A stretch of 46,404 nt of DNA from Deltaproteobacteria bacterium (GTDB taxonomy: Bacteria > Desulfobacterota > Binatia > DP-6): the NCBI GenBank assembly GCA_005879795.1, contig VBKJ01000133.1, forward strand, positions 1 to 46,404. The letters run 5' to 3'. Shown piece after piece: positions 1,193 through 17,810 of this stretch; the first letter of the stretch is position 1; the number at the start of each line of letters is the position of its first letter. The notes beneath the pieces were generated by a model. The model worked only from the letters and a program-made list of their open reading frames with translations, searched no databases and was not told where the DNA came from. The translations under genes and the position numbers were made by a program.

Positions 1193-2287
1193 ATGGCGAG
1201 CGTCGAGTTCGAGCACGTCGACAAGGTCTTCCCCGACGGGACGCGCGCTGTCGCCGACTGCACCCTGCGGGTCGAGGATGGCGAGCTGGTGGTCGTGGTC
1301 GGTCCGTCGGGTTGCGGCAAGTCGACGCTGCTCCGGCTGGTGGCCGGGCTCGAGGAGGTCAGCGCCGGGACGGTCCGCATCGGCGAGCGGGTCGTGAACG
1401 AGCTCAGCCCGCAGGAGCGCAACGTCGCCATGGTCTTCCAGGACTACGCCCTCTACCCGCACCTCTCGGCGCGCGGCAACCTCGAGTTCCCGCTCCGCAT
1501 GCGCCGGCTGCCGCGCGCCGACAGGCGCCGGCGGGTCGAGCGGGCGGCGGAGCTGCTCAGCATCGGCGATCTCCTCGACCGCCTGCCGAGGCACCTCTCG
1601 GGCGGGCAGCGGCAGCGCGTCGCGATGGGCCGCGCGCTCGTGCGGGAGCCGAGCGTCTTCCTCCTCGACGAGCCCCTCTCCAACCTCGACGCCAGGCTCC
1701 GCGTGCAGGTGCGGGCGGAGATCGGGGAGCTGCAGGCGCGCACCGGCACGACGATGATCTACGTGACCCACGACCAGGTGGAGGCGATGACGCTCGGCGA
1801 CCGTGTCGCCGTCCTCGACCGGGGCCGCCTGCAGCAGGTCGCCCCCCCGCGCGACCTCTACGACCGCCCCGCCAACGCCTTCGTCGCGGGCTTCATCGGC
1901 AACCCGCCGATGAACCTCTTCCCCACCCGCCTCTCGGTGGACGACCGGGGCCGGGTCGTGATGGACCTGGGCGGCCAGCCGGTGCCCGTGTCCGGCGCGC
2001 CGGCGCACGCGGCGGCCGTCACCGCCGGCGTCCGCCCGGAGTCGCTGCGGCTGGTGCCCGCCGGCGCCGCCGAGGGCGCCGTGCGCGCCGTCGTCGAGCA
2101 CCTCGAGTGCCTGGGCCACGAGACGCAGGCCCACCTGCGCGTCGCCACCGGCGGCGACGGCGGCGTCCGCCTCGTCGCCCGCGTGCAGGGGATGCCGGGG
2201 CTCGCCAAGGGCGAGCCCGTCGGCGTGCAGGTGGATCCCGCCCGGGTGCACCTCTTCGGGGAGGACGGGCGCGCGCTCGGGGATTGA
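1193..2287 (+). CDS. Sugar ABC transporter ATP-binding protein (UgpC/MalK/MsmX type)
   Basis: This 364-residue protein is the cytoplasmic ATPase of a carbohydrate (CUT1) importer. Walker A GPSGCGKST spans residues 37-45, the Q-loop Gln is at 83, the signature LSGGQ at 135-139, Walker B VFLLDE at 155-160 and the switch His at 193. A C-terminal OB/TOBE-type regulatory region occupies about 240-364, as in MalK and UgpC. I chose the ATG at 1193 because the homologous sequence (VEFEHVDKVF) begins there; an in-frame ATG at 1100 would add a low-complexity Arg-rich leader overlapping the recG debris. The gene converges on the opgGH-ABC-glycosidase operon, whose transporter lacks an ATPase of its own, so it is the obvious partner. 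Ribosome-site evidence is weak. UgpC-like ATPases often serve several importers. Confidence 0.93.
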   Translation: MASVEFEHVDKVFPDGTRAVADCTLRVEDGELVVVVGPSGCGKSTLLRLVAGLEEVSAGTVRIGERVVNELSPQERNVAMVFQDYALYPHLSARGNLEFPLRMRRLPRADRRRRVERAAELLSIGDLLDRLPRHLSGGQRQRVAMGRALVREPSVFLLDEPLSNLDARLRVQVRAEIGELQARTGTTMIYVTHDQVEAMTLGDRVAVLDRGRLQQVAPPRDLYDRPANAFVAGFIGNPPMNLFPTRLSVDDRGRVVMDLGGQPVPVSGAPAHAAAVTAGVRPESLRLVPAGAAEGAVRAVVEHLECLGHETQAHLRVATGGDGGVRLVARVQGMPGLAKGEPVGVQVDPARVHLFGEDGRALGD

Positions 2288-2716: not shown

Positions 2717-5700
2717 TCAGTACTCCAGCAGGATGTCGGCGGGGAACTCCCGGACGGTGGCGGTGTCGGCGGTGTGTGCCGCGAGCGGCCGGCCGTTCAC
2801 GCTGACCGCGCGCAGGGGCCGGGCGAGGGGCGAGCAGACCACGATGCCCCCCGGCGGCACGGCGAGGTCCCCGGACACGCGCAGGCGCACCGCGTCGGCG
2901 CCCTCGGCGCGCAGGCTCAGGTCGAGCACCCCGTGGTACGTCGGCAGACGCTTCACGCTGACGCCCGGCTCGGCCGTGACCCAGGCGGCCGGCACACCCG
3001 CCGCCAGGACGAGCGCCTGGTCCGACTCGCGCTCGTAGGCGAGCAGCGCGCGCACCGAACGGACGAAGGTCGAGCCCACCCAGGTGTGCGGCATGTCCCC
3101 GATGAACCGGGGCGCCTCCCGGTCCCGCCACACGATCTCGGCCCACTCGTTCCAGCCGCGCGGCCGCTGGTCGGCCAGGAGCTGGTCGAGGAGATCGAGC
3201 GCGCGCTGCTTCTCGCCGAGGCGCACGAAGGCGCCCACGTTGCGCACCTCGTAGGGAGAGTACTCGTCCGAGTCCGTGTCGCCCCGTCGTCGCGCCACGA
3301 GCTCCTCCCAGTACCGCTCGAAGGTCCGCGTCAGCGCGGGCTCGGGCAAATGCCCGAGCTCGCCGCCGGGCGCGAGCGCGATGCTCGTCGAGGTCGGGTC
3401 GAAGTCGCCGAGCTCGGCCGAGCCCGGGAGGAAGTCGATCCCGTGCTGCGCCATGGCGCGGCCGATCGAGGCGTAGAGCGCCTCGCGGAAGGAATCGCGC
3501 AACGCCGCGAGCTTGGCGGTGCGCCCCTCGTCGCCGACCACCCGGGCCATGTCGGCCGCGTCCTTCAAGCCCCGCAGCGCGAAGAAGTCGTCCCAGTAGG
3601 AGTGGACCGGGTACCCCGAGTAGCCCTCGTGGCTGATCGAGGCGGGCAGGATGCCGTGGAACACGGCCTTGTCCGGCGCCTTGAAGTCGTCGCCCGTGCT
3701 CTGCCCCCGCAGCGCCGCCAGGTAGTCGACGGCGCGCAGCACGTGCGGCCACATGTCGTGGAGGAAGCCCACGTCGCGGGTGTAGCGGTAGTACTCCGCG
3801 ACGGCGTACACGAACGCTCCCGGGCTGTCGTGCTCGGAGACGCGCTCGGCGCCGCGCCGGTCGACACAGCACGGCACCTTGCCGTCGGGGCCCTGGTAGC
3901 GCGCGTACCAGCGCAGGAACTCGCGCACCTCGGGCGTGAAGCCCATCTCGAGCAGCGCGGAGGAGGTGATGGCCCCGTCCCGGATCCACGAGCGGGCGTA
4001 GTTGCGCGATCCGGGCTGGATGGCGGGGCCGTCGCGGTTGATCTGGATGTAGGCGAGGGTCGTCTTGAGCGTTTGCTCGAGCTTGCGCGCCTCGGGGGGC
4101 AGGTCGATGGCCACCCGCCCGAGCACCGTCTCCCAGTCGCGCCGCGTCCGCTCCTGCTGCTCGGCGACGTAGGCCGCACCGTCGGCGGCGATCAGGCGCG
4201 CGGCGGTGGGTGCCACGTCGTGGAAGGGGACGGCGAGGTCGACCTCCGCACGCCCCTTGGGCTCGAGGTAGAGGTTGTACTGGAGCGCGCCCGAGGCGAA
4301 GCCGAGCGGATCGGTGACCTCGGTGTGCGGCGGCACGCGGTCCGCAGCGAGGAAGCGGGTGACCGAACCCGCCTCGAAGGGCGCGGCGCCGAAGTGGTCG
4401 GGCAGCGTGAGCGAAACCACGGCGCGGTCGCGGTCCACCCAGACCACGCGCCCGTCGAAGCGCATGCTGCGGATGTGCGTGACCCCCCCCGATACGTTGA
4501 GCGTCTGCCAGGGCGGGTTCACCTGGAAGGGACGGATCGCCACGTAGAGCCGCACCGGCTCACCCCGGTCAGCACGGTTGGATATCTGGTAGCGCGCGTA
4601 GAGCGTGGACGCGCCGGGCTCCCCACCCGCGAACGCCGTGACGGTGAGCGTCAGCCGCTCGTGCTGCCAGGTGACCGAGGGAATGGGGAGGTAGCCGTCC
4701 TGCAGCTCCTGCCCGGTCGTGACCGAGTGCCAGGTGACGAGCTCGCCGCCGGCGTAGAGGAAGGGCTCGATCGAGAACGCCGCCTTGTCGACCTCGAGCA
4801 TCCCCTCCTCGTTCAGGAGTGCTTCCTTCTCGTCCCCGGCCGCGCCGACGAGCGTCCAGTACGTCTGGCGCCCGTAGAGGTACTTGGGGTACGTCCCCTC
4901 GGGCGCGTCCCGCGCGATCGCCGCGAAGAAGTCGCTCGGCGAGGCGGAGAACGAGAACGGCTTCACCGTGAGCGTGGCGATGCCATAGCCCTGCGCCCGG
5001 CTGCTGTGCCGGAGGTCGAGGCGGATGAACCGGGACTCGGCGTCCGGGAGGTAGATGTAGTCGCGGCCTCCGTGGCCGGTCACGGTCGAGAAGCCGGTCG
5101 TCCACTGCGTGCCGTCGTTGGAGACCTGCACCTCGAACGACGTCGCGTAGTCGTCCGGGTCCCAATCGATGACGAGGCCGCCGTACTCCCGGTTCTTGCG
5201 GAAGTCGAGGAGCACCGACTGGGCGCGCGGGACCGGCTCGCTCTTCCAGCCCGTCGCCGCGTCCTCGTCGAGCATCAGCGGCGGCTCGTGGCCGGGCAGC
5301 GAGGTCGAGGCCTGGATGTCGGGGGGGACGCCGTCCGGGGTCACGGGCTCGCGCTCCTCGAAGCGGAGGTCGTCGATCCAGATCGATCCGCTCCCCCCCT
5401 CCCCGGCCGAGATCGCGAACTCGATGGTGCCCACCTGCTTCGGCTCCCGGGCTCGGGACGGGCCCCAGGCGAGGGAGAGGCGGGACTTGCGGATCGTGAT
5501 GCCCTGCCAGTCGGTGGGAAAGGAGAAGTCGCGCTGATTCTCCCACCAAACGTTCTTCCCGGCCGGGTCGACCAGCTTGAACTCGAAGTTGTTGCCGCGC
5601 CCTTCCCCGCGCAGGGAGAAGGTGAACGCGTAGTTCTCGGGCAGCGTGAGCGGGAACTGCTTGCGCACGATGACGTACCCGCCGCCGCTGCCGAGGTCGA

Positions 5701-5899
5701 ACCCGACGCGCATCCCCATGCCCGAGTGCCCGGGCTCCTGGAGCGTCCACGCGCGCGCGCCCTCGGAGGCGACGGTGGTCCAGCCGGTGAACGTCTCGAA
5801 GTCGTCGAGGACGACGCTCGCAGCGCGTGCGCGGGCGCCGCCCAGGTGGAGCGCGAGGAGGAGAGCGGCCGGCCAGGTCGCTCGGCGTGCGGTCGTCAC
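2717..5899 (-). CDS. Secreted modular glycoside hydrolase: CBM-like + discoidin (F5/8C) + six-hairpin catalytic domain
   Basis: The protein has 1060 residues. A signal peptide (about 1-27, hydrophobic run then ARAA) leads into a jelly-roll, CBM11/CIA30-like domain (about 28-190, VVLDDFE...WIDDLRFE). A discoidin or coagulation-factor 5/8-type module follows (about 195-325, with VQVSNDGTQW and FIRLDLR). The rest is a beta domain plus an (alpha/alpha)6 six-hairpin catalytic region of the GH15/GH63/GH94 superfamily. Conserved-looking acidic motifs there are SWIRDGA near residue 637, EHDSPG near 688 and IGDMPHTWVGS near 933. I infer hydrolysis of an oligo- or polysaccharide in the periplasm or outside the cell; the exact family and substrate cannot be read. 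GTG at 5899 fits the signal peptide and lies 8 bases after the upstream permease stop, so it is the last gene of the opgGH/ABC operon. Confidence 0.8.
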   Translation of the reverse strand: MTTARRATWPAALLLALHLGGARARAASVVLDDFETFTGWTTVASEGARAWTLQEPGHSGMGMRVGFDLGSGGGYVIVRKQFPLTLPENYAFTFSLRGEGRGNNFEFKLVDPAGKNVWWENQRDFSFPTDWQGITIRKSRLSLAWGPSRAREPKQVGTIEFAISAGEGGSGSIWIDDLRFEEREPVTPDGVPPDIQASTSLPGHEPPLMLDEDAATGWKSEPVPRAQSVLLDFRKNREYGGLVIDWDPDDYATSFEVQVSNDGTQWTTGFSTVTGHGGRDYIYLPDAESRFIRLDLRHSSRAQGYGIATLTVKPFSFSASPSDFFAAIARDAPEGTYPKYLYGRQTYWTLVGAAGDEKEALLNEEGMLEVDKAAFSIEPFLYAGGELVTWHSVTTGQELQDGYLPIPSVTWQHERLTLTVTAFAGGEPGASTLYARYQISNRADRGEPVRLYVAIRPFQVNPPWQTLNVSGGVTHIRSMRFDGRVVWVDRDRAVVSLTLPDHFGAAPFEAGSVTRFLAADRVPPHTEVTDPLGFASGALQYNLYLEPKGRAEVDLAVPFHDVAPTAARLIAADGAAYVAEQQERTRRDWETVLGRVAIDLPPEARKLEQTLKTTLAYIQINRDGPAIQPGSRNYARSWIRDGAITSSALLEMGFTPEVREFLRWYARYQGPDGKVPCCVDRRGAERVSEHDSPGAFVYAVAEYYRYTRDVGFLHDMWPHVLRAVDYLAALRGQSTGDDFKAPDKAVFHGILPASISHEGYSGYPVHSYWDDFFALRGLKDAADMARVVGDEGRTAKLAALRDSFREALYASIGRAMAQHGIDFLPGSAELGDFDPTSTSIALAPGGELGHLPEPALTRTFERYWEELVARRRGDTDSDEYSPYEVRNVGAFVRLGEKQRALDLLDQLLADQRPRGWNEWAEIVWRDREAPRFIGDMPHTWVGSTFVRSVRALLAYERESDQALVLAAGVPAAWVTAEPGVSVKRLPTYHGVLDLSLRAEGADAVRLRVSGDLAVPPGGIVVCSPLARPLRAVSVNGRPLAAHTADTATVREFPADILLEY

Positions 5900-5907
5900 C
5901 CGGCGCG

Positions 5908-6729
5908 CTACTCCTTCACGCTCCCGGCCATGATGCCGGCGAGGTAGTAGCGCTGCAGGCAGACGAAGAGCACGAGGACGGGCAGCACGGTCAGCACCGC
6001 CCCGGCCATCATCAGCTCCACGTCCTGCACGTGCTCGCCCGCCAGGTTCGCGAGCGCCACCGGCAAGGTGTAGCGGCGGGCGTCGGCGAGCACGACGAGC
6101 GGCCACATGAAGTCGTTCCACGTCCCCATGAACGTGAAGACGGCGAGCGTCACCAGGATGGGCGCGCACAGGTACAGCACCAGCGAGCGGTAGATACGGA
6201 GCTCGCCGGCGCCGTCGATGCGGGCGGCGTCGAGCACGCTCTCCGGAATGGAGAGGGCGTACTGACGGACGAGGAAGATGCCGAAGACGCTCGCCATCCC
6301 CGGGACGATCACGCCCGCGTACGTGTTCACCAGGCGGAGCTCGCGGAGCATCAGGAAGAGCGGCAGCATGCCGACCTGGGCCGGGATCACGAGGCCTGCC
6401 AGGAGGACGCGGAAGATGTGCTCGCGCCCGGCGAAGCGGAGCTTGGCAAAGGCGTAGCCCGCCATGGAGTTCACGAGGAGCGCGATCACCGTGACCGACG
6501 CGGCGAGCCCGGCGCTGTTGCGCAAGGAGCGCGCCAGGTCGAGGCGCGTGAAGAGCCCGCGATAATGCTCGAACGTGATGGCGCTCGGCACGAGGCGCGG
6601 CGGGACGGCGGTGGCCTCGCCGGCGGGCATCAGCGACGCCGAGACCATCCAGAGGAGCGGGGCGAGGACGAGCACGGCGCCCCCGACGAGGGCCGCGTGC
6701 AGCAGGACCGCCTCGGCCGCACGCCTCAT
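5908..6729 (-). CDS. Carbohydrate ABC transporter permease (MalG/UgpE type)
   Basis: This 273-residue inner-membrane permease has six predicted hydrophobic segments. The EAA loop, which docks the ATPase, reads DAARIDGAGELRIYRSLVLYLCAPI in sense, with DAARIDGAG as its core. The short N-terminus, PPRLVPSAITFEHY segment and YYLAGIMAGSVKE ending are typical of MalG/UgpE/LacG-type CUT1 permeases. Its ATG overlaps the stop of the preceding permease by four bases (ATGA, 6726-6729), implying translational coupling. It would pair with the neighbouring MalF-type subunit in a heterodimeric channel importing an oligosaccharide delivered by the lipoprotein encoded upstream. The substrate is not readable from the permease. 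Confidence 0.93.
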   Translation of the reverse strand: MRRAAEAVLLHAALVGGAVLVLAPLLWMVSASLMPAGEATAVPPRLVPSAITFEHYRGLFTRLDLARSLRNSAGLAASVTVIALLVNSMAGYAFAKLRFAGREHIFRVLLAGLVIPAQVGMLPLFLMLRELRLVNTYAGVIVPGMASVFGIFLVRQYALSIPESVLDAARIDGAGELRIYRSLVLYLCAPILVTLAVFTFMGTWNDFMWPLVVLADARRYTLPVALANLAGEHVQDVELMMAGAVLTVLPVLVLFVCLQRYYLAGIMAGSVKE

Positions 6730-7667
6730 GCGCCCGCCTCCTCCGCCCCCCGCCGCCCCGCCGGTGCCGTCGCCATCTCCCGCTCTCCAACCATTAGCCC
6801 GCGCAGCCGAAGTTGCAAGGCCGTGCCGGCGAGGATGACGGCGAAGAGCACGAAGGCGATCGCCGCGCCGCGGCCCATGGTCCACCAGCGGAAGCCCTCC
6901 TCGTACATGAGCAGCACGACGCTGAGGGTGCTGTCCGCCGGCCCTCCCTGGGTCATGACGTAGGGTTCGGCGAAGAGCTGGAAGTAGCCGATCATCGTGA
7001 CCACGCCGACGAAGACGAAGGTCGGCGCGAGCATCGGCAGCGTGACCCGCCGGAACTGCTGCCAGGCGCCCGCGCCGTCGATCCGGGCGGCCTCGTAGAG
7101 GCGCTCCGGGACGTTCTCGAGCCCGGCGACGAAGATGATCATGTTGAAGCCGAAGTTCTTCCACACCGCGAGCAGGATGATGGCGGGCATGGCCCAGGCG
7201 GGATCGCCGAGCCAGTCGATCGGACCGAGCCCGACCAGCGCGAGCCCCCGGTTCAAGAGGCCGAAGCGGGGGTGGTAGAGGTAGCGCCAGACGACCGCAA
7301 CCGCGACCAGCGTGGTCACCACGGGCAGGAAGAAGACCGTCCGGAAGAAGCCGCGGAGGCGCGCCAGCCTGGCGTTCACGAGGAGCGCCGCGCCGAGCGA
7401 GACGGCGACGGAGAGCGGGCCGCCGACGAGGACGAAGTAGAGCGTGTTGCGGAGCGCGATCCAGAAGCGCGGGTCGCGCAGGAGGGTTGCGTAGTTGTCC
7501 CCGCCGACCACCCGCAGGTGGCGCGGGTCGCCGATGGCGTAGACGTCGAAGTCCGTGAAGCTCAAGAGCAGCGCGGCGACGACCGGCGCGAGGAAGAAGA
7601 CGCCGATCAGGCCGAGCGCCGGCGCCACGAACCAGACGGCGGGACCGATCCGCCGGCGCCGCGTCAC
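6726..7667 (-). CDS. Carbohydrate ABC transporter permease (MalF/UgpA type)
   Basis: This 313-residue inner-membrane protein has six hydrophobic segments and a binding-protein-dependent transport (MetI-like) domain. The EAA-loop core EAARIDGAGAWQQFRRVTLP is seen towards the C-terminus, with the family motif PYVMTQGGPADST after it. Those two features are typical of UgpA/MalF/LacF permeases. The start is GTG at 7667, inside a GTGA overlap with the stop of the binding-protein gene (7664-7667); a longer frame would add a non-hydrophobic Arg/Gly-rich leader. It forms the translocation pore with the next gene's product. The ATPase is presumably the UgpC-like protein at 1193-2287. Confidence 0.93.
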   Translation of the reverse strand: MTRRRRIGPAVWFVAPALGLIGVFFLAPVVAALLLSFTDFDVYAIGDPRHLRVVGGDNYATLLRDPRFWIALRNTLYFVLVGGPLSVAVSLGAALLVNARLARLRGFFRTVFFLPVVTTLVAVAVVWRYLYHPRFGLLNRGLALVGLGPIDWLGDPAWAMPAIILLAVWKNFGFNMIIFVAGLENVPERLYEAARIDGAGAWQQFRRVTLPMLAPTFVFVGVVTMIGYFQLFAEPYVMTQGGPADSTLSVVLLMYEEGFRWWTMGRGAAIAFVLFAVILAGTALQLRLRGLMVGEREMATAPAGRRGAEEAGA

Positions 7668-8977
7668 CGCGCCTCCGCCTGGCCGAGGAGCCAGCGGCGC
7701 TTCGCGAGCAGCGCGTCCACCTTCCCATCGAGCGCGGCGAGCGCCTCGTCCGCCGTCATGGTCCCGCGCACCGCCGCCTCCGCGTGCCGGGCGATCTCGG
7801 TGGCGATCCGCTCCCACTCGGGGATCTTCGGCGTCGCGCGCACGGCCTCGAGCTGCGTCCAGAACGCGCCCGTGTACGGCTCACGGTCGAGCGCCGCCTC
7901 GGTCCACGCGCTCCGCCGCGCCGGAAGGTCACCCGTCAGCCGGTAGAAGCGCGTCTGCTGGGCCGGCTCGGAGAGGTACTCGATCAGCTGCCAGGCAGCC
8001 TCCTTGCGGGGCGAGCTCCGGTAGAGGGCGAGGCTCGCGCCGCCGGCGAGCGAGACACCCGGGTAGCCGGCGTCGGGCGCCGGCAGGGGTGCGGTCGCCC
8101 AGCGCCCCTCCAGGCCGGGCGGCAGCCGCTGCCGGAACTCGCCGATGTTCCACGGGCCGCTCATATACAGGGCGAAGTACCCGGCCGCGAAATCCTGGTA
8201 CACGTTGGTCACGGCGGCCTCCCCGGTGCCGGGCGCGAAGCCGCGCCGGAAGAGGTCGAGGTAGAAGTCGAACGCCTGGCGGAAGGGCGGGCTGCGGAAG
8301 TCGCCGTAGCGCTCGCCGTCGCGCAGGAGCCCCGCTCCGAGCTGCAGCGCCAGGACGACCGGCGGCTGCCACTCGTGGAGGGGGAGCAGGATCGCATAGC
8401 GCTCCGGGCCCGCTCGCGCCTTCACCCGCACCATCGCGTCGGTCCACGTCGCCCACGTGCGCGGGGGGTCGGGACAGCCGACCTCCGCGAGCAGGTCGCG
8501 GCGGTAGAAGAGGACGCGCGTGTCCACGTACCACGGCACGCCGCGGGTGACGCCGTCGACGACGTTGGTATCGAGGATGCCGGGGAAGTAGTCTCCGCCC
8601 GCGAGGACCGGAGAGCGCGCGATCCGGCCGTCGAGCGGTTCGAGCGCGCCCAGGGCGGCGAGCTCCGGGAGCCAGGTGTTGCCCGCCTGGAAGACGTCGG
8701 GCATCGCCCCGCCCACGTAGGCCGTCACCAGCTTCTCGTGCGCGGCGCTCCACGGAATCTGCTGCACGCGTACGCGGCGGCCCGGATGGCGGCGCTCGAA
8801 CCCCGGCATCAGCTGCGCCACCACCTCTCCCTCGCGCCCCATCGCCCACAGCTCGATCACCACGCCGTCGTGCGCGTCACGGCTGCAGCCGAGCCAGGCG
8901 CCGAGCAGCAGCAGGGCGAGGCGCGGGCCGACGTGGGAGGGGCGGCGCGCGGGACGGGACGGACGCGGCGGGCTCAA
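7664..8977 (-). CDS. Sugar-binding lipoprotein of ABC importer (family 1 solute-binding protein)
   Basis: The mature part is a family 1 extracellular solute-binding protein (MalE/UgpB-like). It opens with VIELWAMGREGEVV, contains VTAYVGGAMPDVFQAGNTW, and has the DFAAGYFALYMSGPWNIGEF signature of sugar-binding members. The N-terminus carries a basic stretch, then LALLLLGAWLGC, a lipobox whose Cys would be lipidated and tethered to a membrane. No ATG or GTG lies in frame ahead of the lipobox. TTG at 8977 overlaps the opgH stop as TTGA (8974-8977), the same arrangement as neighbouring junctions, giving 437 residues. The protein should capture an oligosaccharide in the periplasm. Given the operon this may be an OPG-derived glucan, but that is inference. 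Confidence 0.9.
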   Translation of the reverse strand: MSPPRPSRPARRPSHVGPRLALLLLGAWLGCSRDAHDGVVIELWAMGREGEVVAQLMPGFERRHPGRRVRVQQIPWSAAHEKLVTAYVGGAMPDVFQAGNTWLPELAALGALEPLDGRIARSPVLAGGDYFPGILDTNVVDGVTRGVPWYVDTRVLFYRRDLLAEVGCPDPPRTWATWTDAMVRVKARAGPERYAILLPLHEWQPPVVLALQLGAGLLRDGERYGDFRSPPFRQAFDFYLDLFRRGFAPGTGEAAVTNVYQDFAAGYFALYMSGPWNIGEFRQRLPPGLEGRWATAPLPAPDAGYPGVSLAGGASLALYRSSPRKEAAWQLIEYLSEPAQQTRFYRLTGDLPARRSAWTEAALDREPYTGAFWTQLEAVRATPKIPEWERIATEIARHAEAAVRGTMTADEALAALDGKVDALLAKRRWLLGQAEAR

Positions 8978-11679
8978 GGCGAGGGCGGCGGCCCCGGGTG
9001 CGGGGCCCGCCCGGGACGGCCCCAGCGCGCGGCCCGCTCGCGCTCGGGCAGGCCCCAGACGCGCCGGTGGAGCCCGTCGGTCAGGTCGGGATCCCGGAGC
9101 AGGATGCCGCGCTCGCGCGCCGTCAGGCTCGCGGGCCCTTCGGCGAGCGCCCGCTCGAGCAGCGCCTCGCGCGCCGCCCGGAGCCTCGGCTCGAGCGAAC
9201 GCCTGCGGCCGAGCAGCGCCCGGTGCAGCGCGTTCACGTAGGGATCGACGGCGGCACGGACGAAGCCGTCCCGCTCGCGCTCGGGCAACGCGGACGTCTT
9301 GCGGCGGGCGATGCGCGCCAGCTCGAGCAGGTCGTGCAGCTCCGGGGGTGGCGCCGTCTCCTCGGGGATCACGAACAGCCCCCACCGCCGCGCGCGCTCG
9401 CCCAGGCTCGAGCGGCTCGTGTACACCGAGAGCGGCACCGACAGGATGAGCGCGCCGATGACCGGCGTCACCCACCAGAAGTAGCCCGGGCTCAGCCAGA
9501 AGAGGGCCGCGCCCCACGCGCTCGCGAACAGCGAGTCGAGCCCGTGGTGCCGGAGCGCCTCCCGCCAGCTGGTGGTGATCTCCTCCCGGCCCTGCGAGCG
9601 CCAGCCCACGGTGCGCCCGAGCAGGTTCGTCAGGACGAACCGGCTGTGGAACACCATGCGGATGGGGGCGAGCAGGCTCGAGAGCAGTATCTCGAGAAGC
9701 ACGCCGAGCGACAGCTTCACGACGCCGCCGAAGGCCCGCGCGCTGCGCCGCCTGAGCACGATCAGGAGCACGCTCAGGATCTTGGGGAGGAAGAGGATCA
9801 TGGCGATCACCGCCAGCAGCCAGAGCGCCCAGTCGAGTCTCCAGATCGGCCACTCGGGGAACAGGCTCGCCCCGTGCGGGAAGTACTCGGGCTCCCGGAG
9901 CGCGGTCGCGACCGCCTCCACCGTGCTGAGCGTCAAGAAGACGAACCAGAGGAGGGCCGAGACGTACGACAGCGCGCCGTTCAGGAAGAGCGCGCGGTGC
10001 GCGCCGAACAGGCCCTCGGTGAAGAGGAGCCGCAGGTGCTGCAGGTTCCCCTGGCACCAGCGGCGGTCGCGCTTCATCTCCTCGAGCAGCGTCGACGGCG
10101 TCTCCTCGTAGCTGCCCCCGAGGTCGTAGGCGAGCCACAGGCTCCACCCGGCCCGCCCCATGAGGGCGGCCTCGACGAAGTCGTGGCTCAGGATCTCGCC
10201 GCCGAGCGGCTCCCGGCCGGGGAGGCGGGGCAGCGCGCAGTGATCCATGAAGGGCTCGACGCGAACGATCGTGTTGTGCCCCCAGTACTGCCCGTCGCCC
10301 AGCTGCCAGTAGTGGAGGCCGGCCGCGAACATCGGGCCGTACACCCGGCTCGCGAACTGCTGCACGCGCGCGAACAGCGAGCTGCGGTTCACGGCCGCGG
10401 GTGCGGTCTGGATCATGCCGACGCCCGGGTGGCGCTCCATGAGCTCGACGAGACGGACGAGCGTCTCGCCGGTCATCAGGCTGTCGGCGTCGAGTACGAC
10501 CATGTAGCGGTAGCGCCGGCCCCAGCGCCGGCAGAAGTCGGCGACGTTGCCGCTCTTGCGCTCCACGCGCGCCTTGCGGCGGCGATAGAAGATACGGCCG
10601 AAGCCGTCGACGGCGCGACACCAGTCGAACCATGCCTCCTCCTCCTTCACGGCCGCGCTCGGGTCGGCCGAGTCGCTGAGCACGAAGAAGTGGAAGCGGT
10701 CGAGCGCGCCGGCGCGCTCGAGGGAGCGATGGATCGCCCTGAGCCCCGCGAACACCCGCTCGACCGGCTCCTCGCAGACGGGCATCACGATGGCCGCGAG
10801 GACGCCCTCGGCCGGGGCCGCCGGCGCCTCGTCGCCCGACGGCTCGAGGCTGGTGATCGCGAAGCGATCGCGGCGGCGGACGAGGGTGAGGAAGCCGAGC
10901 ACGGCGGTCCAGAAGCCGATCGATATCCAGCCGAAGAGGGCGCCGAAGAAGGCCGCGATCGTGACCTCGAGCCAGGTGCGCCCCTGGTGGGGCAGGACGC
11001 CGACCATGAACTCGCTCGCGATGATGGTGGGGACGAGCACCAGCAGACCGAGCAGGAGCCGGCGTCGGAACGCGACGCGCGCCCACGGGAGCCGGCGGCG
11101 CATCCGGCGGAGCTGGCCGCCATAGAGCGCCCGGTCGGCCGGGGCGGCCGGCGCCCGCTTCCGGCGCCGGCGGCGCAGGAAGCGGCGCTCGATCGGCTCC
11201 GAGACCATCGCCCGGCGGCTGAGCTCGGGCATCGAGCGCAGGAGACCGTCCCCGGCGGCGATCCCCGCCGGCCGGCCCGGGTTGTCGCTCCGTGGCGAGC
11301 GTCCTCCGAACGCCCGCTCGAGGCGCCAGGGGAGGAAGCCGTCGGGGGGGCCCTGCGGCGGACGCGCGGCTCCCGGACGCTCCTCCTGCACGAGCTGGCG
11401 CAGCGCGCGCATCGTCTCCGACACCGCGTCGCCCCCGGTCTCCCACGGCTGCGTCAGGGCGCGTTCGACCGCCCGGGCCGCGAGGGCGCCATGGTCGTGC
11501 GCGTCGAGCCCGAGGGCGGCAAGGTAGGCGCGCGCGCGTGTGTGGGCCTCCTTCCAGTCGTGGAGGATCCGGCCCGCGGGCACCTCGAGGCGGCGGTCGC
11601 ACGCCGGGCCGACCTGTCGCAGCGGAGCCGGATCGCCATCCATCGCGGGAGAACGCGAGCGGGGTGCCTGCTCGCTCAC
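8974..11679 (-). CDS. opgH: Glucans biosynthesis glucosyltransferase H (OpgH/MdoH)
   Basis: This 901-residue inner-membrane GT2 glycosyltransferase matches the full length of E. coli OpgH (about 850 residues). Its cytoplasmic GT-A domain shows IVMPVCEEP, the VVLDADSL (DxD-type) motif near residue 395, an acidic LSHDFVEAALM motif and RRWCQGN (the Q/RxxRW motif) near residue 540. It is flanked by hydrophobic segments before (ARVAFRRRLLLGLLVLVP) and after. OpgH polymerises the linear beta-1,2-glucan backbone of osmoregulated periplasmic glucans from UDP-glucose and is thought to move it across the inner membrane. The start is GTG at 11679, overlapping the opgG stop (GTGA, 11676-11679). Unusually, the gene continues directly into a sugar ABC importer instead of ending a two-gene opgGH operon. 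Confidence 0.95.
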   Translation of the reverse strand: MSEQAPRSRSPAMDGDPAPLRQVGPACDRRLEVPAGRILHDWKEAHTRARAYLAALGLDAHDHGALAARAVERALTQPWETGGDAVSETMRALRQLVQEERPGAARPPQGPPDGFLPWRLERAFGGRSPRSDNPGRPAGIAAGDGLLRSMPELSRRAMVSEPIERRFLRRRRRKRAPAAPADRALYGGQLRRMRRRLPWARVAFRRRLLLGLLVLVPTIIASEFMVGVLPHQGRTWLEVTIAAFFGALFGWISIGFWTAVLGFLTLVRRRDRFAITSLEPSGDEAPAAPAEGVLAAIVMPVCEEPVERVFAGLRAIHRSLERAGALDRFHFFVLSDSADPSAAVKEEEAWFDWCRAVDGFGRIFYRRRKARVERKSGNVADFCRRWGRRYRYMVVLDADSLMTGETLVRLVELMERHPGVGMIQTAPAAVNRSSLFARVQQFASRVYGPMFAAGLHYWQLGDGQYWGHNTIVRVEPFMDHCALPRLPGREPLGGEILSHDFVEAALMGRAGWSLWLAYDLGGSYEETPSTLLEEMKRDRRWCQGNLQHLRLLFTEGLFGAHRALFLNGALSYVSALLWFVFLTLSTVEAVATALREPEYFPHGASLFPEWPIWRLDWALWLLAVIAMILFLPKILSVLLIVLRRRSARAFGGVVKLSLGVLLEILLSSLLAPIRMVFHSRFVLTNLLGRTVGWRSQGREEITTSWREALRHHGLDSLFASAWGAALFWLSPGYFWWVTPVIGALILSVPLSVYTSRSSLGERARRWGLFVIPEETAPPPELHDLLELARIARRKTSALPERERDGFVRAAVDPYVNALHRALLGRRRSLEPRLRAAREALLERALAEGPASLTARERGILLRDPDLTDGLHRRVWGLPERERAARWGRPGRAPHPGPPPSP

Positions 11680-13244
11680 GGCAGGATCACGTAGGACCAC
11701 GTCTCCGTCAACGTGTCGCCCCCCTGCTCCAGGAACGCCCGCAGCTCGAGCGGCTCCCGCCTCTTCGGCCGCACCTGGAACGTGAGCCGCCAGCCGCCGG
11801 TGAAGGGATTCTTCACCACGTGCTCCTCGAGGAGCTCGCCGGCCTCGGCTCCGCCGGCCACGGTGACCACGCCGTGCAGCACCCGGTCGGCCGGTATCGC
11901 CGCCAGCTTCTTGCCGGCGAAGTCGATCACGAAGCGCTGGGCATCCTTGGCGGTGCCGCCGTCGCGACGGGTGGCCACGGCGCGACCGCCGGGCGGCCGT
12001 GCCGGGTCGTCGCCGAACCAGTAGAGGGTGTACGAGAAGGCGGCCGGCTCGCCGGGCTTCGGCGCGCTCTCCGGCACCCAGTAGGCGACCACGTTGTCGT
12101 TCGTGTCCGAGGGGCTCGGAATCTCGACCAGCTCCACGGAGCCCGCTCCCCAGTCGCCGCCCGCCTCGACCCAGGCGCTCACCCGGCGCTCCGGGTACGT
12201 CTCCAGATCCTGGTAGTGATCGAACTCGCGATCTCGCTGCAGCAGCCCGAACCCCCGAGGCCTCTCCATCCGGAAGCGGTTCACGTTCAGCGTGCGGCGG
12301 TTCTCGAGCGGGCGCCACAGCCACTCGCCGCTCGCGAAGCCGATGAGCAGCCCGTCGGAGTCGTGCACCTCGGGGCGGAAGTCGTCGAAGGGCCGGTTGG
12401 TGTTCTCGCCGTGGAAGAACATGCTGGTGAGCGGCGCGATCCCGAGCTTGCGCACCTCCTTGCGCAGGAAGAGGCGGCACTCGACGTCGACCGCCGTCTG
12501 CTCGCCCGGGCGGACCACGAAGCGATAGGCGCCGCTGAGCCTCGGGCTGTCGAGCAGGGCGTAGACCGTCAGGCGGTCCGCCTGCGGAGCGGGGCTGACC
12601 AGCCAGAATTCCTTGAAGAAGGGGAACTCCTCGCCCCAGGACTCCGCCGTGTCGATGCCGAGCCCGCGCGCCGACAGCCCGAACCCCTCGTCCTTCCCGA
12701 CCGCTCGAAAGTAGGTCGCGCCGAGGAACACGATGACCTCGTCGAAGTAGTCCCGCGTCTTGATCGGATAGTGGGCACGAAGGCCGGCATAGCCGAGGTT
12801 CTGCGGCACCCGGCTCGCGAAGTCGTTCTTGCCGTAGTCGAACTGATCGGGCGAGAAGTCGACGGGGTGGATCCCTTTCGCCTCGACGACGTTCACCCGC
12901 ACGGTCCGGTTGTAGTATAGCCCGGGGTGGAAGAACTGCACCTGGAAGGGCGCCTTCCGGTCACGCCAGAGCGCCCGCTCGGGCCGGAAGCGGATTTCGC
13001 GCCACTGGTCGTAGCTGATCTTGAGGAGCCAGTCGGGCACTCGTCCCTTCGCGTCGAGGAAGGGCTTCTCGGCGAGCCGGTGGGCCCTCTCGGCCACGTC
13101 GTCGAGACCGAACGCCGCGGCGCGGGCGGGGAGCGCCGCCACGGCGAGCGCCGCGAGCGCATGGAGCAGCGCTGACCGGCGCGCGCCCTCCGCCCCCGGC
13201 GACCACATGCTGCGCAAGGTCATGCAGGGAATGGCTCGTTTCAT
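11676..13244 (-). CDS. opgG: Periplasmic glucans biosynthesis protein OpgG (MdoG)
   Basis: This 522-residue exported protein is close to the 511 residues of E. coli OpgG. A basic N-terminus and the hydrophobic LLHALAALAVAALPARAAAF give a signal peptide ending near residue 45. The mature part starts with GLDDVAERAHRLAEKPF and carries the family blocks FHPGLYYNRTVRVNVV, FFHGENTNRPFDDFRPEVHDSDGLL and DFDHYQDLE-like EFDHYQDLETYPE, which are diagnostic of MdoG/MdoD. OpgG is required for OPG assembly in the periplasm; OpgG/OpgD family members have lately been shown to act on beta-1,2-glucan. ATG at 13244 was chosen; ATGs at 13223 and 13211 would still leave a signal peptide and cannot be excluded. 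It heads the operon, with 125 bp separating it from the divergent monooxygenase gene. Confidence 0.95.
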   Translation of the reverse strand: MKRAIPCMTLRSMWSPGAEGARRSALLHALAALAVAALPARAAAFGLDDVAERAHRLAEKPFLDAKGRVPDWLLKISYDQWREIRFRPERALWRDRKAPFQVQFFHPGLYYNRTVRVNVVEAKGIHPVDFSPDQFDYGKNDFASRVPQNLGYAGLRAHYPIKTRDYFDEVIVFLGATYFRAVGKDEGFGLSARGLGIDTAESWGEEFPFFKEFWLVSPAPQADRLTVYALLDSPRLSGAYRFVVRPGEQTAVDVECRLFLRKEVRKLGIAPLTSMFFHGENTNRPFDDFRPEVHDSDGLLIGFASGEWLWRPLENRRTLNVNRFRMERPRGFGLLQRDREFDHYQDLETYPERRVSAWVEAGGDWGAGSVELVEIPSPSDTNDNVVAYWVPESAPKPGEPAAFSYTLYWFGDDPARPPGGRAVATRRDGGTAKDAQRFVIDFAGKKLAAIPADRVLHGVVTVAGGAEAGELLEEHVVKNPFTGGWRLTFQVRPKRREPLELRAFLEQGGDTLTETWSYVILP

Positions 13245-13369: not shown

Positions 13370-14878
13370 TTGCAAGCCCAGGATCGGACCCATCCGCGCA
13401 TCGTCATCATCGGGTCGGGCTTCGGCGGCCTTTGCATGGCGATCCAGCTGAAGCGGACCGGGATCCATTCCTTCACCATCCTCGAGAAGACCGACCGGCT
13501 GGGCGGCACCTGGCGCGACAACACCTACCCCGGCGCCGCGTGCGACTCGCCCTCGTTCGTGTACTGCTTCTCCTTCGAGCTGAAGACCGACTGGTCGCGG
13601 AAGTGGGCGCCGCAGGCGGAGATCCTCGCCTACATGGAGCACTGCAACCTCAAGTACGACCTCCTCCCCCACATCCGCTTCGGGACCGAGGTCGCGGGCG
13701 CGCGCTTCGACGCGGACGCCGGCATCTGGCGCATCCGCACCGCCGCCGGCGAGACGATCGAGGCCGAGGTGCTGGTGAGCGCCGTCGGGCAGCTGAATCG
13801 CCCGTCGCACCCTGCCATCCCCGGGCTCGCTCGCTTCCGGGGCGTGTCCTTCCACTCCGCGCGCTGGCGGCCCGACGTGGACCTCGGCGGCAAGACCGTG
13901 GCCGTGATCGGCAACGCCGCGAGCGCCATCCAGTTCATCCCCCAGATCGCGCCCGTGGTGAAGCGTCTCCACGTCTTCCAGCGCAGCGCCAACTGGATGA
14001 TCGCGAAGAACGACCGGGTCTACGGCGAGCGGGAGAAGCGACTCTTCGCACGCGTGCCCGGCCTCGCCCGGCTATACCGCTGGTGGCTCTGGTTCCAGTA
14101 CGAGCAGCGCTTCCCGATCTTCCGCCGGAACCGCTTCATGAGCCGCATGATCACCCGCATGGCCGAGGAGAACATCCGCGCGACGGTGTCCGATCCGGCG
14201 CTGCAGCGCGCGCTCGTGCCCGACTACCCGATCGGCGGCAAGCGCATCCTCATCTCCGACGACTACTACCAGGCGCTCAACCGGGACGACGTCGAGGTCG
14301 TGACGAGCCCGATCGAGCGCGTGACCGAGGACGCGATCGTGACCCGCGACGGCCGCGCCCGCCCCGCGGACGTCGTCATCGTCGCGACCGGCTTCGAGAG
14401 CACGTCGTTCCTCGTGCCGATGAAGATCGCGGGACCCGACGGCCGCCTGCTGGAGGAGGTCTGGCAGGACGGCGCGGAGGCGTACCTCGGCATCAGCGTC
14501 GCGGGCTTCCCGAACTTCTTCATGCTCTACGGCCCCAACACGAACCTCGGCCACAACTCGATCATCTTCATGATCGAGTGCCAGGTGCGCTACATCATGG
14601 ACTGCATCCGGGCGCTCGCGGCGCGCGACCTCGCGTGGCTCGACGTCCGCGCCGACGTGATGCGGGCGTACAACGAGCGTCTGCGGGCCGTGCTCGCGCG
14701 CTCGGTGTGGGCGACGACCGACCACAGCTGGTACAAACGGGCCGACGGGCGCATCACCAACAACTGGTCCGGCACCACGGTCGCGTACTGGTGGCGGACC
14801 CGCCGCGCCGACCTCCGCCTCTACCGGCAGCGGGCGCGCACGCGGGCGGCCGAGGCCGCGGTCGCGCAGGTCGCCTGA
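13370..14878 (+). CDS. Flavin-containing monooxygenase, Baeyer-Villiger type
   Basis: This 502-residue FAD/NADPH enzyme has a first Rossmann motif GSGFGG (15-20). The type I Baeyer-Villiger fingerprint FxGxxxHxxxW is met at F156, G158, H162 and W166, and a second nucleotide-binding motif GNAASA sits at 181-186. The central TGF segment (ATGFEST) is also typical. Family members insert oxygen next to a carbonyl (ketone to ester or lactone) or oxygenate heteroatoms. The length and the DNTYPGAACDSPSFVYCFSF block resemble cyclohexanone- and steroid-type enzymes. The start is TTG at 13370, supported by a strong GAGGAGAGG ribosome site a few bases upstream and by the immediate start of the Rossmann strand. 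The next genes encode a DUF1329 protein and a dioxygenase, compatible with catabolism of a hydrophobic compound. The substrate is unknown. Confidence 0.92.
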   Translation: MQAQDRTHPRIVIIGSGFGGLCMAIQLKRTGIHSFTILEKTDRLGGTWRDNTYPGAACDSPSFVYCFSFELKTDWSRKWAPQAEILAYMEHCNLKYDLLPHIRFGTEVAGARFDADAGIWRIRTAAGETIEAEVLVSAVGQLNRPSHPAIPGLARFRGVSFHSARWRPDVDLGGKTVAVIGNAASAIQFIPQIAPVVKRLHVFQRSANWMIAKNDRVYGEREKRLFARVPGLARLYRWWLWFQYEQRFPIFRRNRFMSRMITRMAEENIRATVSDPALQRALVPDYPIGGKRILISDDYYQALNRDDVEVVTSPIERVTEDAIVTRDGRARPADVVIVATGFESTSFLVPMKIAGPDGRLLEEVWQDGAEAYLGISVAGFPNFFMLYGPNTNLGHNSIIFMIECQVRYIMDCIRALAARDLAWLDVRADVMRAYNERLRAVLARSVWATTDHSWYKRADGRITNNWSGTTVAYWWRTRRADLRLYRQRARTRAAEAAVAQVA

Positions 14879-15004: not shown

Positions 15005-15034
15005 TTGCCCTCGCGCCCGGATCCGGGCTACAGT
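15005..15034 (+). promoter_or_regulatory. Candidate promoter of the DUF1329 gene
   Basis: TTGCCC (15005-15010) is followed after 18 bp by TACAGT (15029-15034), a common -10 form, about 30 bases upstream of the ATG at 15066. It lies in the 187 bp gap after the monooxygenase gene and suggests the DUF1329 gene has its own promoter. Confidence 0.4.
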
Positions 15035-15065
15035 GCCGCGCCGGTCGGCGGGTGAGCTGAACACC

Positions 15066-16391
15066 ATGATGTCCAGGCCAGGGCTCGTCGTGGTCGCTCT
15101 CGTCCTCTTCGCGACCGTCGCCGCGCGCGCGGCTGAGGGGCCGAAGCCCGGCGAGACGCTCGATCAGAGCACCTGGCGGGAGGCGGAGACCCTGCTGCCC
15201 CCGGAGATCCTGCGGCACTACCGCGAGGGCGAGTACAGCAACCCCATCGTCGACTGGCCGGAGAGCAAGTACAGCTGGCCGCCGGACTTCCTCGCCGCGA
15301 CGAAGGCCAACGCGGGCAGGTTCACCGTAGGCCCGCGCGGGGAGATCCTGAGCAAGGAGACCGGCAAGCAGCCGCCGTACGTCCTCGGCCTGCCGTTTCC
15401 GACCATCGACCCGAGCGATCCGGCGGCCGGCGTGAAGGTGGTGTGGAACCAGTTCTACCGCTTCTGGTACTTCGGGAACCTGCTCGCCGAGTCGCAGGTG
15501 AACTGGATCAGCCCCCGGGGCCTCGACCGCCGCACCGACCTGGACGTCCGCTTCGCCTACTACGACGGCGTCCCGGCGGACGAGCGCCTGCCGAACCCGC
15601 AGAACTTCCTGACCCAGGCCCTGATCCTCGTGAAGGCGCCCGCCGACCTGCACGGCACCGCCGCCCTCACCTGGCGGTACCGGGATCCCGACCGGCGGGA
15701 CTCCACCTGGTCCTACGTCCCCGCGCTCCGCCGCGTGCGGGCCGTGAGCCCGGCCAACCGGTCCGACGGCTTCCTCGGCTCGGACATGAGCCAGGACGAC
15801 GGTCCCTTCTTCGACGGCAAGCCGGAGGACTTCGAGTGGCATTTGAAGGGCGAGGCGGAGGGGCTCCGCTTCGCCGAGGACCTCAATCTGAAGGACGTCT
15901 CCAAGGCCCGCTGGGTGCCGGAGGTCGGGGCCTGGGACGCGGACTGGCCCGACACGAAGTTCCTCGGCTACATGGATCCCGCGTGGAAGGGCCTCGCGTG
16001 GGCGCCGACCGGCCCCTCGGTGCTCGCCCGGCGGCCGTTCTGGGTGGTCGAGGGCGTGCCGCGCGACCGCTACTACCTCTACGGCAAGCTCGAGCTCTGG
16101 ATCGACAAGCTCACCTACCAGGGCGCCTGGCACCGCAAGTACGGTTGGAAGGGCGAGCAGCTGAACACCATGCAGGTGATGGCGTGGAACCCGATCCCGT
16201 TCACGCGGCCGAACGGCAAGGTCGACTACATGCAGGGCTCGAACATGGCCTACCAGTGCGCGGAGAACCTGAAGCTCAACCGTGCCACGGTCGCCGGGAT
16301 CAAATCGAGCCCGACGTCCCATTTCTATGGCCGGATCAAGTTCAACCCCGACGTCTTCGACGTCGAGGCCCTCGTGCGCTCCGGCAAGTAG
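15066..16391 (+). CDS. DUF1329 family outer-membrane/periplasmic protein
   Basis: This 441-residue exported protein has a signal peptide at about 1-24 (VVVALVLFATVAARAAEG). The mature part shows DUF1329 features: LPPEILRHYREGEY, RFTVGPRGEILSKETGKQPPYV, GLPFPTIDP, a Tyr/Trp-rich middle (KVVWNQFYRFWYFG) and the EWHLKGEAEG segment. The fold is related to LolA/LolB-like lipoprotein-sorting proteins. DUF1329 genes commonly sit beside RND or FadL-type systems and hydrocarbon or steroid catabolism genes, but no biochemical role is firmly established. ATG at 15066 (or 15069) was preferred over GTG at 15033 because it directly precedes the signal peptide. It lies between the monooxygenase and dioxygenase genes, so it may help deliver a hydrophobic substrate. 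Confidence 0.85.
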   Translation: MMSRPGLVVVALVLFATVAARAAEGPKPGETLDQSTWREAETLLPPEILRHYREGEYSNPIVDWPESKYSWPPDFLAATKANAGRFTVGPRGEILSKETGKQPPYVLGLPFPTIDPSDPAAGVKVVWNQFYRFWYFGNLLAESQVNWISPRGLDRRTDLDVRFAYYDGVPADERLPNPQNFLTQALILVKAPADLHGTAALTWRYRDPDRRDSTWSYVPALRRVRAVSPANRSDGFLGSDMSQDDGPFFDGKPEDFEWHLKGEAEGLRFAEDLNLKDVSKARWVPEVGAWDADWPDTKFLGYMDPAWKGLAWAPTGPSVLARRPFWVVEGVPRDRYYLYGKLELWIDKLTYQGAWHRKYGWKGEQLNTMQVMAWNPIPFTRPNGKVDYMQGSNMAYQCAENLKLNRATVAGIKSSPTSHFYGRIKFNPDVFDVEALVRSGK

Positions 16392-16407
16392 CGGGGCCGC
16401 GGGCCCG

Positions 16408-17666: not shown

Positions 17667-17688
17667 GCCGGCGGCGTGGGCCGCCGGC
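17667..17688 (+). terminator. GC-rich hairpin, possible terminator
   Basis: A perfect 9 bp stem (GCCGGCGGC / GCCGCCGGC) encloses a GTGG loop about 100 bp after the dioxygenase stop. Only a weak pyrimidine run (CACCTTTC) follows, so intrinsic termination is possible but not certain. Confidence 0.3.
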
Positions 17689-17810
17689 GTCACCTTTCGC
17701 TGGGCGTGGTCTCCCCCCTTTTCGGCGCTGCTGCTCAGGTCTCATTCGATTACCCTCCTCGCCGGCGCATGGTACCCGCAGGCGAGCTGACCAGATCACG
17801 AGGAGGTCGC

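What the first reader, a model, noticed from the sequence alone, without database searches (positions are those of the whole stretch)
2717..13244. OPG synthesis genes fused at operon level to a sugar ABC importer and a secreted glycosidase
opgG, opgH, a sugar-binding lipoprotein, two CUT1 permeases and a modular glycoside hydrolase form one minus-strand unit. Four junctions are 4-base stop/start overlaps (11676-11679, 8974-8977, 7664-7667, 6726-6729) and the fifth gap is 8 bp. opgGH normally stands alone. The arrangement suggests a glucan made by OpgGH, trimmed by the glycosidase and taken back by the importer: a recycling or remodelling cycle for periplasmic glucan. The cycle itself is inference.
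Basis: partly seen in the sequence, partly recalled or inferred. Interest (0 to 1): 0.75.

Follow-up and report, generated by a model that had tools for sequence, protein, structure and literature searches.

The report
Glucan synthesis genes joined to glucan uptake
In a soil bacterium of the class Binatia, the two genes that make the cell's periplasmic sugar polymer (an OPG, a beta-1,2-glucan) share one operon with an importer and a sugar-cutting enzyme that elsewhere belong to beta-1,2-glucan-eating gene clusters, which points to a built-in make, trim and take-back cycle for this polymer.

Summary
A MalK-type ATPase, the only OB_MalK match in the genome, lies convergently at 1193-2287, so the importer is complete.

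The linkage is not unique. In 145 related genomes the glycosidase occurs in 28, all of which have OpgG (34 of 145 overall). The binding-protein gene lies within 4.1 kb of opgG in 16 of 27 genomes, in several arrangements, and in one gammaproteobacterium.

The substrate is most likely beta-1,2-glucan. The binding protein's nearest solved relatives are Xanthomonas citri 3uor and Lin1841, which binds beta-1,2-gluco-oligosaccharides. Across phyla the glycosidase sits with GH144, cyclic-glucan-synthase-type GH94, GH186 or this binding protein in 50 of 60 loci. Its fold is the GH15/65/94 type; its sequence fits no characterised family well.

In foraging clusters the same module goes with a TonB receptor and GH144; in Binatia opgG/opgH are linked to it instead. 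The recycling cycle is well motivated but untested biochemically. This is a new variant joining two known kinds, with an uncharacterised enzyme family.

The parts
11676..13244 (-). opgG: GH186/MdoG-superfamily periplasmic glucan protein. Catalytic Asp pair kept (D295, D383). EcOpgD Loop A is shortened. Residues that mark the Xanthomonas ring-forming OpgD are changed (W76 to Tyr78, D343 to Leu347, R477 to His475).
   Evidence: Pfam PF04349 636 bits; PDB alignments, best to E. coli OpgG 469 bits, XccOpgD 385, EcOpgD 330; residue mapping; only copy in the genome.
8974..11679 (-). opgH: GT2 membrane beta-1,2-glucan synthase with DAD (397), HD (499-500) and RRWCQ (539) motifs
   Evidence: NCBIfam MdoH 914 bits; motifs.
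7664..8977 (-). Sugar-binding protein of the importer, probable lipoprotein; predicted ligand beta-1,2-gluco-oligosaccharide
   Evidence: SBP_bac_1; 3uor 461 bits, Lin1841 236 bits, next best 134 bits.
6726..7667 (-). CUT1 permease (MalF/UgpA type)
   Evidence: PF00528, NCBIfam.
5908..6729 (-). CUT1 permease (MalG/UgpE type)
   Evidence: PF00528, NCBIfam.
2717..5899 (-). Modular exported glycosidase, 1060 aa: signal peptide, CBM11-like, CBM32, beta-supersandwich plus (alpha/alpha)6 catalytic domain. Invariant acidic residues E758, D770, E921, D935.
   Evidence: AlphaFold2 pLDDT 92.9, pTM 0.91; Foldseek and VIA-align.
1193..2287 (+). MalK-type ABC ATPase, convergent with the operon; the only OB_MalK match in the genome; completes the importer

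Best explanation
This is an OPG synthesis operon with its own turnover branch. OpgH makes a linear beta-1,2-glucan and passes it to the periplasm; OpgG (GH186) processes it. The exported CBM11-CBM32 glycosidase, probably with a separate periplasmic enzyme of the beta-1,2-glucanase clan (contig C110), cuts surplus glucan into oligosaccharides. The binding protein, two permeases and MalK return these to the cytoplasm, where a beta-glucosidase (and, in relatives, a GH94 phosphorylase) breaks them down. One transcript would keep synthesis and salvage in step. Shown: gene content, junctions, conserved linkage, families, complete importer. Inferred: substrate identity, direction of flux, reaction of the glycosidase, co-transcription.
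For: 1) The same six-gene order occurs in G005 and G006; G001 has one 3.5-kb insertion; G002 is split over two contigs. Other genera keep the genes together in other orders: opgG or opgG-opgH divergent from SBP-F-G(-GH), with MalK, GH94, GH1 or opgH close by (L036-L042, L046, L174-L177). SBP lies within 4.1 kb of opgG in 16 of 27 genomes. 2) Co-occurrence: all 28 glycosidase genomes have OpgG (hypergeometric P 2e-24 by genome, 6e-13 by genus, not corrected for phylogeny). 3) Linkage outside Binatia: L166 (gammaproteobacterium: GH94, GH, permeases, SBP, MalK, divergent opgG) and L089/L134, two GH186 genes beside the glycosidase. 4) Substrate: the SBP is related to Lin1841, which binds sophoro-oligosaccharides (PMC12369401). 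In Xanthomonad-like genomes an SBP 70-73% identical to 3uor sits in LacI-TonB-GH144-SBP-F-G-GH loci, and X. campestris GH144 is a proven beta-1,2-glucanase (PMC12102758). 50 of 60 glycosidase loci carry GH94, GH144, GH186 or this SBP. [quoted passage not shown] 6) GH144, TonB and LacI never share a locus with OpgG (GH144: 0 of 8 against 24 of 52, P 0.017, not phylogeny-corrected), and the genome has only two TonB-plug matches against 34-70 in Xanthomonad-like genomes, which favours own glucan over foreign glucan.
Against: No biochemistry. The GH94 phosphorylase beside the glycosidase in relatives was not found in this genome; the only GH94 match is the truncated end of a cyclic glucan synthase, so the cytosolic step rests on GH1/GH3 candidates elsewhere. 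In 11 of 27 genomes the SBP is not beside opgG. The same importer and glycosidase serve what look like foraging clusters in other phyla, so the module is not made for recycling alone.
Confidence: 0.6

Rival explanations
1. The operon is a foraging system for glucans released by other bacteria. OpgG acts as its endo-beta-1,2-glucanase in the place where GH144 stands in Xanthomonad, Gemmatimonadota and Acidobacteriota clusters; opgH is only a passenger or has been captured.
For: GH186 includes true endo-beta-1,2-glucanases (EcOpgD; PMC10514313). The same SBP-F-G-GH module sits in TonB/LacI/GH144 clusters. L089 and L134 have GH186 pairs with the glycosidase and no opgH or importer beside them.
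Against: opgH lies inside the operon with intact GT2 motifs and stays linked in several rearrangements. No TonB receptor or LacI regulator was found in the opg-linked loci and TonB plugs are scarce in the genome. OpgG is closest to EcOpgG, and the EcOpgD GW hydrolase loop is missing.
Confidence: 0.2
2. The glycosidase and OpgG remodel the glucan as part of its manufacture (size trimming or opening of rings), and the binding protein reports glucan level or returns small by-products only; there is no quantitative recycling.
For: OpgD-type enzymes set OPG length in E. coli (PMC11842490). A periplasmic relative of the GH189 ring-closing domain is linked to opgH and MalK in several relatives (L174, L176, L077). 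The glycosidase fold is close to enzymes acting on alpha-1,6 links.
Against: A complete CUT1 importer and, in relatives, a cytosolic-looking GH94 beside it imply carbon recovery rather than only shaping.
Confidence: 0.13
3. The importer carries an unrelated sugar (maltose or another alpha-glucan) and its joining to opgGH is a chance operon fusion.
For: 3uor is described in the literature as a MalE (recalled, not tested); weak GDE_C and GH15-type matches of the glycosidase.
Against: Repeated linkage in different orders, near-perfect co-occurrence with OpgG and the beta-1,2-glucan neighbours in many phyla.
Confidence: 0.07

Closest known systems
opgGH (mdoGH) operon of Gammaproteobacteria
   Same: OpgG and OpgH homologues, adjacent, same order, overlapping here
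   Different: Here the operon runs on into an importer and a glycosidase. OpgG lacks the Loop A seen in EcOpgD and the residues that mark the Xanthomonas ring-forming enzyme.
Listeria innocua lin1839-1841 and Streptomyces griseus SGR_2422-2427 beta-1,2-gluco-oligosaccharide clusters
   Same: Lin1841-type binding protein of an ABC importer next to enzymes for beta-1,2-glucan
   Different: Those are uptake and breakdown clusters only; none is reported to contain glucan synthesis genes, and their enzymes are GH94, GH3, GH1 and GH193 rather than this glycosidase.
Ignavibacterium album GH144/GH35/GH94 cluster (PMC8861115) and TonB-GH144-SBP-F-G-GH loci found here
   Same: Lin1841-type SBP and CGS-type GH94; the loci found here carry the same glycosidase
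   Different: TonB receptor, GH144 and LacI instead of OpgG-OpgH: taking up foreign glucan rather than making it.
GH15 glucodextranase and dextran dextrinase, GH65, GH94, GDE_C (amylo-alpha-1,6-glucosidase)
   Same: Beta-supersandwich plus (alpha/alpha)6 fold (VIA Z 26-31, 520-600 residues aligned)
   Different: 10-17% identity only; two extra binding modules; genomic setting is beta-1,2-glucan.

Membership tests
OPG synthesis operon (opgGH) | MdoG-family periplasmic protein with both catalytic Asp residues | tested here: met
   PF04349 636 bits; D295 and D383 align with EcOpgD D300 and D388.
OPG synthesis operon (opgGH) | MdoH GT2 glucosyltransferase next to opgG | tested here: met
   NCBIfam 914 bits; 4-base overlap; DAD, HD and RRWCQ motifs.
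OPG synthesis operon (opgGH) | Makes a beta-1,2-glucan | not testable with these tools
   Needs biochemistry.
Alpha-1,6-cyclised beta-1,2-glucohexadecaose synthase (GH186 clade 3) | W76 (or Tyr), D343 and R477 of XccOpgD | tested here: not met
   Y78 is allowed, but L347 and H475 are not (PMC11228985).
Beta-1,2-gluco-oligosaccharide CUT1 importer (Lin1841 type) | Binding protein homologous to Lin1841 | tested here: met
   236 bits over 392 residues, second only to 3uor, about 100 bits above the next best.
Beta-1,2-gluco-oligosaccharide CUT1 importer (Lin1841 type) | Two permeases and a MalK-type ATPase | tested here: met
Beta-1,2-gluco-oligosaccharide CUT1 importer (Lin1841 type) | Measured binding of beta-1,2-gluco-oligosaccharides | not testable with these tools
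   Needs ITC or a similar assay.
[quoted passage not shown]
   No PF10091 match for the glycosidase; the catalytic domain has a fused beta-supersandwich. The separate C110 protein does match PF10091.
GH15/GH65/GH94-like fold group | Beta-supersandwich plus (alpha/alpha)6 fold | tested here: met
   Foldseek E 2e-18 to GH94, VIA Z 30.6 to GH15 dextran dextrinase; membership of a numbered CAZy family could not be tested.
GH133-like GDE_C | Pfam GDE_C over most of the domain | tested here: inconclusive
   21.6 bits against a cut-off of 21, covering only positions 13-115 of 367.

The most novel reading that the evidence does not exclude
Binatia carry a dedicated OPG salvage pathway encoded together with OPG synthesis, and the CBM11-CBM32 enzyme is the founder of a new glycoside hydrolase family for beta-1,2-glucans, possibly the one that opens rings closed by an alpha-1,6 bond.
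Probability: 0.3. Interest if true: 0.75.

Novelty: new variant of a known kind. Interest (0 to 1): 0.58.

Why it matters
I found no described route for the recycling or turnover of OPGs in the papers searched (the library is limited). An operon that pairs the glucan synthase with a matching importer would give a genetic handle on OPG turnover. It would also predict the ligand of the Xanthomonas protein 3uor and mark an enzyme family, spread over many phyla, for assay on beta-1,2-glucans.

Tried and rejected
Xanthomonas CbG16alpha synthase as the identity of OpgG: rejected on marker residues. A cytosolic 1,2-beta-oligoglucan phosphorylase in this genome: the GH94 on C81 looked like one at first (ORF 1192 aa) but is the contig-truncated end of a cyclic glucan synthase. 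Neighbouring GH94s of relatives as Lin1839/LpSOGP-type: no LpSOGP entry was among the PDB hits at E 1e-10; they match the C-terminal half of CGS. OpgH had no solved relative in the PDB sequence search. Divergent upstream genes (FMO-like, DUF1329, PhyH) look unrelated. A Pfam scan of the whole A2 alignment was over the size limit. Literature searches for opgGH next to an importer found no precedent, but subscription papers are not held.

Full report
WHAT IS THERE. The window is contig C133 of a 4.1-Mb metagenome-assembled genome. Its nearest named relatives are soil and groundwater MAGs filed as Deltaproteobacteria or Candidatus Binatia. Six minus-strand genes follow one another: opgG 11676-13244, opgH 8974-11679, binding protein 7664-8977, permeases 6726-7667 and 5908-6729, glycosidase 2717-5899. 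The junctions read GTGA, TTGA, GTGA, ATGA and an 8-base gap. Family assignments are strong for all but the catalytic domain of the glycosidase. A MalK-type ATPase lies at 1193-2287 on the plus strand, convergent with the operon, and is the only OB_MalK match in the genome; the importer is therefore complete.

THE GLUCAN-MAKING PAIR. OpgH matches NCBIfam MdoH at 914 bits and keeps its GT2 motifs. OpgG is nearest to E. coli OpgG (469 bits), then Xanthomonas OpgD (385) and E. coli OpgD (330). Both catalytic aspartates of GH186 are kept (D295, D383), but the loop that holds the EcOpgD hydrolase Trp is shortened, and two of three residues that mark the Xanthomonas ring-forming enzyme are changed (PMC10514313, PMC11228985). 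It is thus a GH186 protein with intact catalytic residues of a type that has not been assayed.

THE IMPORTER. The binding protein's best solved relatives are 3uor from Xanthomonas citri (461 bits) and Lin1841 (236 bits); the next is at 134 bits. That 3uor comes from X. citri is recalled, not shown by the tool. Lin1841 binds beta-1,2-gluco-oligosaccharides (PMC12369401). In three gammaproteobacterial genomes whose binding protein is 70-73% identical to 3uor, the gene order is LacI, TonB receptor, GH144, binding protein, permeases, glycosidase. GH144 from X. campestris is a proven endo-beta-1,2-glucanase (PMC12102758). This makes a beta-1,2-gluco-oligosaccharide the likely ligand.

THE GLYCOSIDASE. 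It has a signal peptide by eye, a CBM11-like module, a CBM32 module and a catalytic domain with no close solved relative by sequence. The AlphaFold2 model from 59 homologues is confident (pLDDT 92.9, pTM 0.91). Its catalytic part is a beta-supersandwich plus (alpha/alpha)6 barrel like GH15, GH65 and GH94 enzymes, at 10-17% identity. The rows are close to tied, so neither anomer nor linkage can be read from them. Invariant acidic residues include E758, D770, E921 and D935. Pfam gives only a partial GDE_C match just over its cut-off. CAZy could not be searched, so I call it an enzyme family uncharacterised in the sources at hand.

NEIGHBOURS OF THE GLYCOSIDASE ACROSS BACTERIA. The scan of 85,000 species genomes returned 321 relatives; the best 80 loci span Proteobacteria, Binatia, Gemmatimonadota, Bacteroidota/Ignavibacteria, KSB1, Acidobacteriota, Verrucomicrobiota and Planctomycetota. 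Of 60 loci of at least 10 kb, 31 carry CGS-type GH94, 24 GH144, 23 the binding protein, 13 GH1 and 8 OpgG; 50 have at least one of GH94, GH144, OpgG or binding protein. [quoted passage not shown] A protein of that kind has been proposed to release sophorose in Ignavibacterium (PMC8861115). The setting is thus beta-1,2-glucan metabolism.

LINKAGE TO OPG SYNTHESIS. In 145 related genomes OpgG occurs in 34, the glycosidase in 28 (all with OpgG) and the binding protein in 27 (26 with OpgG). These P values (2e-24 by genome, 6e-13 by genus) ignore phylogeny and overstate independence. The binding protein lies within 4.1 kb of opgG in 16 of 27. The order of the window is kept in G005 and G006, in G001 with an insertion, and in G002 across two contigs; elsewhere opgG, or opgG-opgH, is divergent from the importer, with MalK, GH94, GH1 or opgH close by. 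Different orders with the same content argue for selection on the grouping. Outside the class, L166 (gammaproteobacterium) has opgG divergent from the importer-glycosidase-GH94 run, and L089 and L134 have two GH186 genes beside the glycosidase.

OWN GLUCAN OR FOREIGN GLUCAN. The same module occurs in two settings: with TonB receptor, LacI and GH144, or with OpgG/OpgH. No locus held both OpgG and GH144 (0 of 8 against 24 of 52, P 0.017, not phylogeny-corrected). The window genome has two TonB-plug matches, Xanthomonad-like genomes 34 to 70. This favours the cell's own periplasmic glucan as the substrate here, but does not prove it.

HOW IT PROBABLY WORKS. Shown: genes, order, families, complete importer, conserved grouping. 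Inferred: OpgH makes the glucan, OpgG shapes it, the glycosidase (and the periplasmic SGL-clan protein on C110) cuts it, the importer takes fragments back, and cytosolic enzymes finish it. In this genome the last step rests on GH1 and GH3 candidates, since the only GH94 found belongs to a truncated cyclic glucan synthase. The assembly is fragmented, so a missing GH94 phosphorylase could lie in a gap.

VERDICT. Observation confirmed. Interpretation partly supported: substrate class and grouping are well supported, the cycle is not tested. Both halves are known kinds; their union and the enzyme family are the new points.

Noticed in passing
L106, L109, L110, L118, L126, L138, L140, L148 and L051-L071 in part: A second group of paralogues of the glycosidase (about 42-48% identical to the window copy) stands next to an ABC_membrane_2 / SbmA-BacA-like ABC protein (PF06472) instead of the CUT1 importer, in Thiocapsa, Methylocaldum, Binatia and others. 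Function unknown.
   Followed up: partly
L077:14401-16251, L074:14275-15918, L174:13467-15005, L176:12652-14409; own genome C110 = L179:8056-9435: A standalone protein with signal peptide (seen by eye in L077 and in the own copy), related to the ring-closing GH189 domain of cyclic glucan synthase (136 bits) and to GH144, is paired with MalK and often with opgH in relatives: a possible ring-forming or glucan-cutting partner of OpgH.
   Followed up: partly
[quoted passage not shown]
   Followed up: partly
L089:6120-9533 and L134:8958-12246: Two tandem GH186 genes beside the glycosidase without importer or opgH, in a gammaproteobacterium and another proteobacterium.
   Followed up: partly
Own genome C168:29-1636 (L069): A second copy of the glycosidase, cut off by the contig end, 46% identical to the window copy.
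   Followed up: no
L168, L169, L171: The solved Xanthomonas citri protein 3uor probably belongs to a TonB/GH144 beta-1,2-glucan cluster and may be a beta-1,2-gluco-oligosaccharide binder rather than a maltose binder.
   Followed up: partly
window 13370-14878 (+), 15033-16391 (+), 16282-17568 (+), 17676-21182 (+): Plus-strand genes upstream of opgG: FMO-like monooxygenase, DUF1329, PhyH-like dioxygenase and a subtilase/FG-GAP protein; no visible tie to the operon.
   Followed up: no
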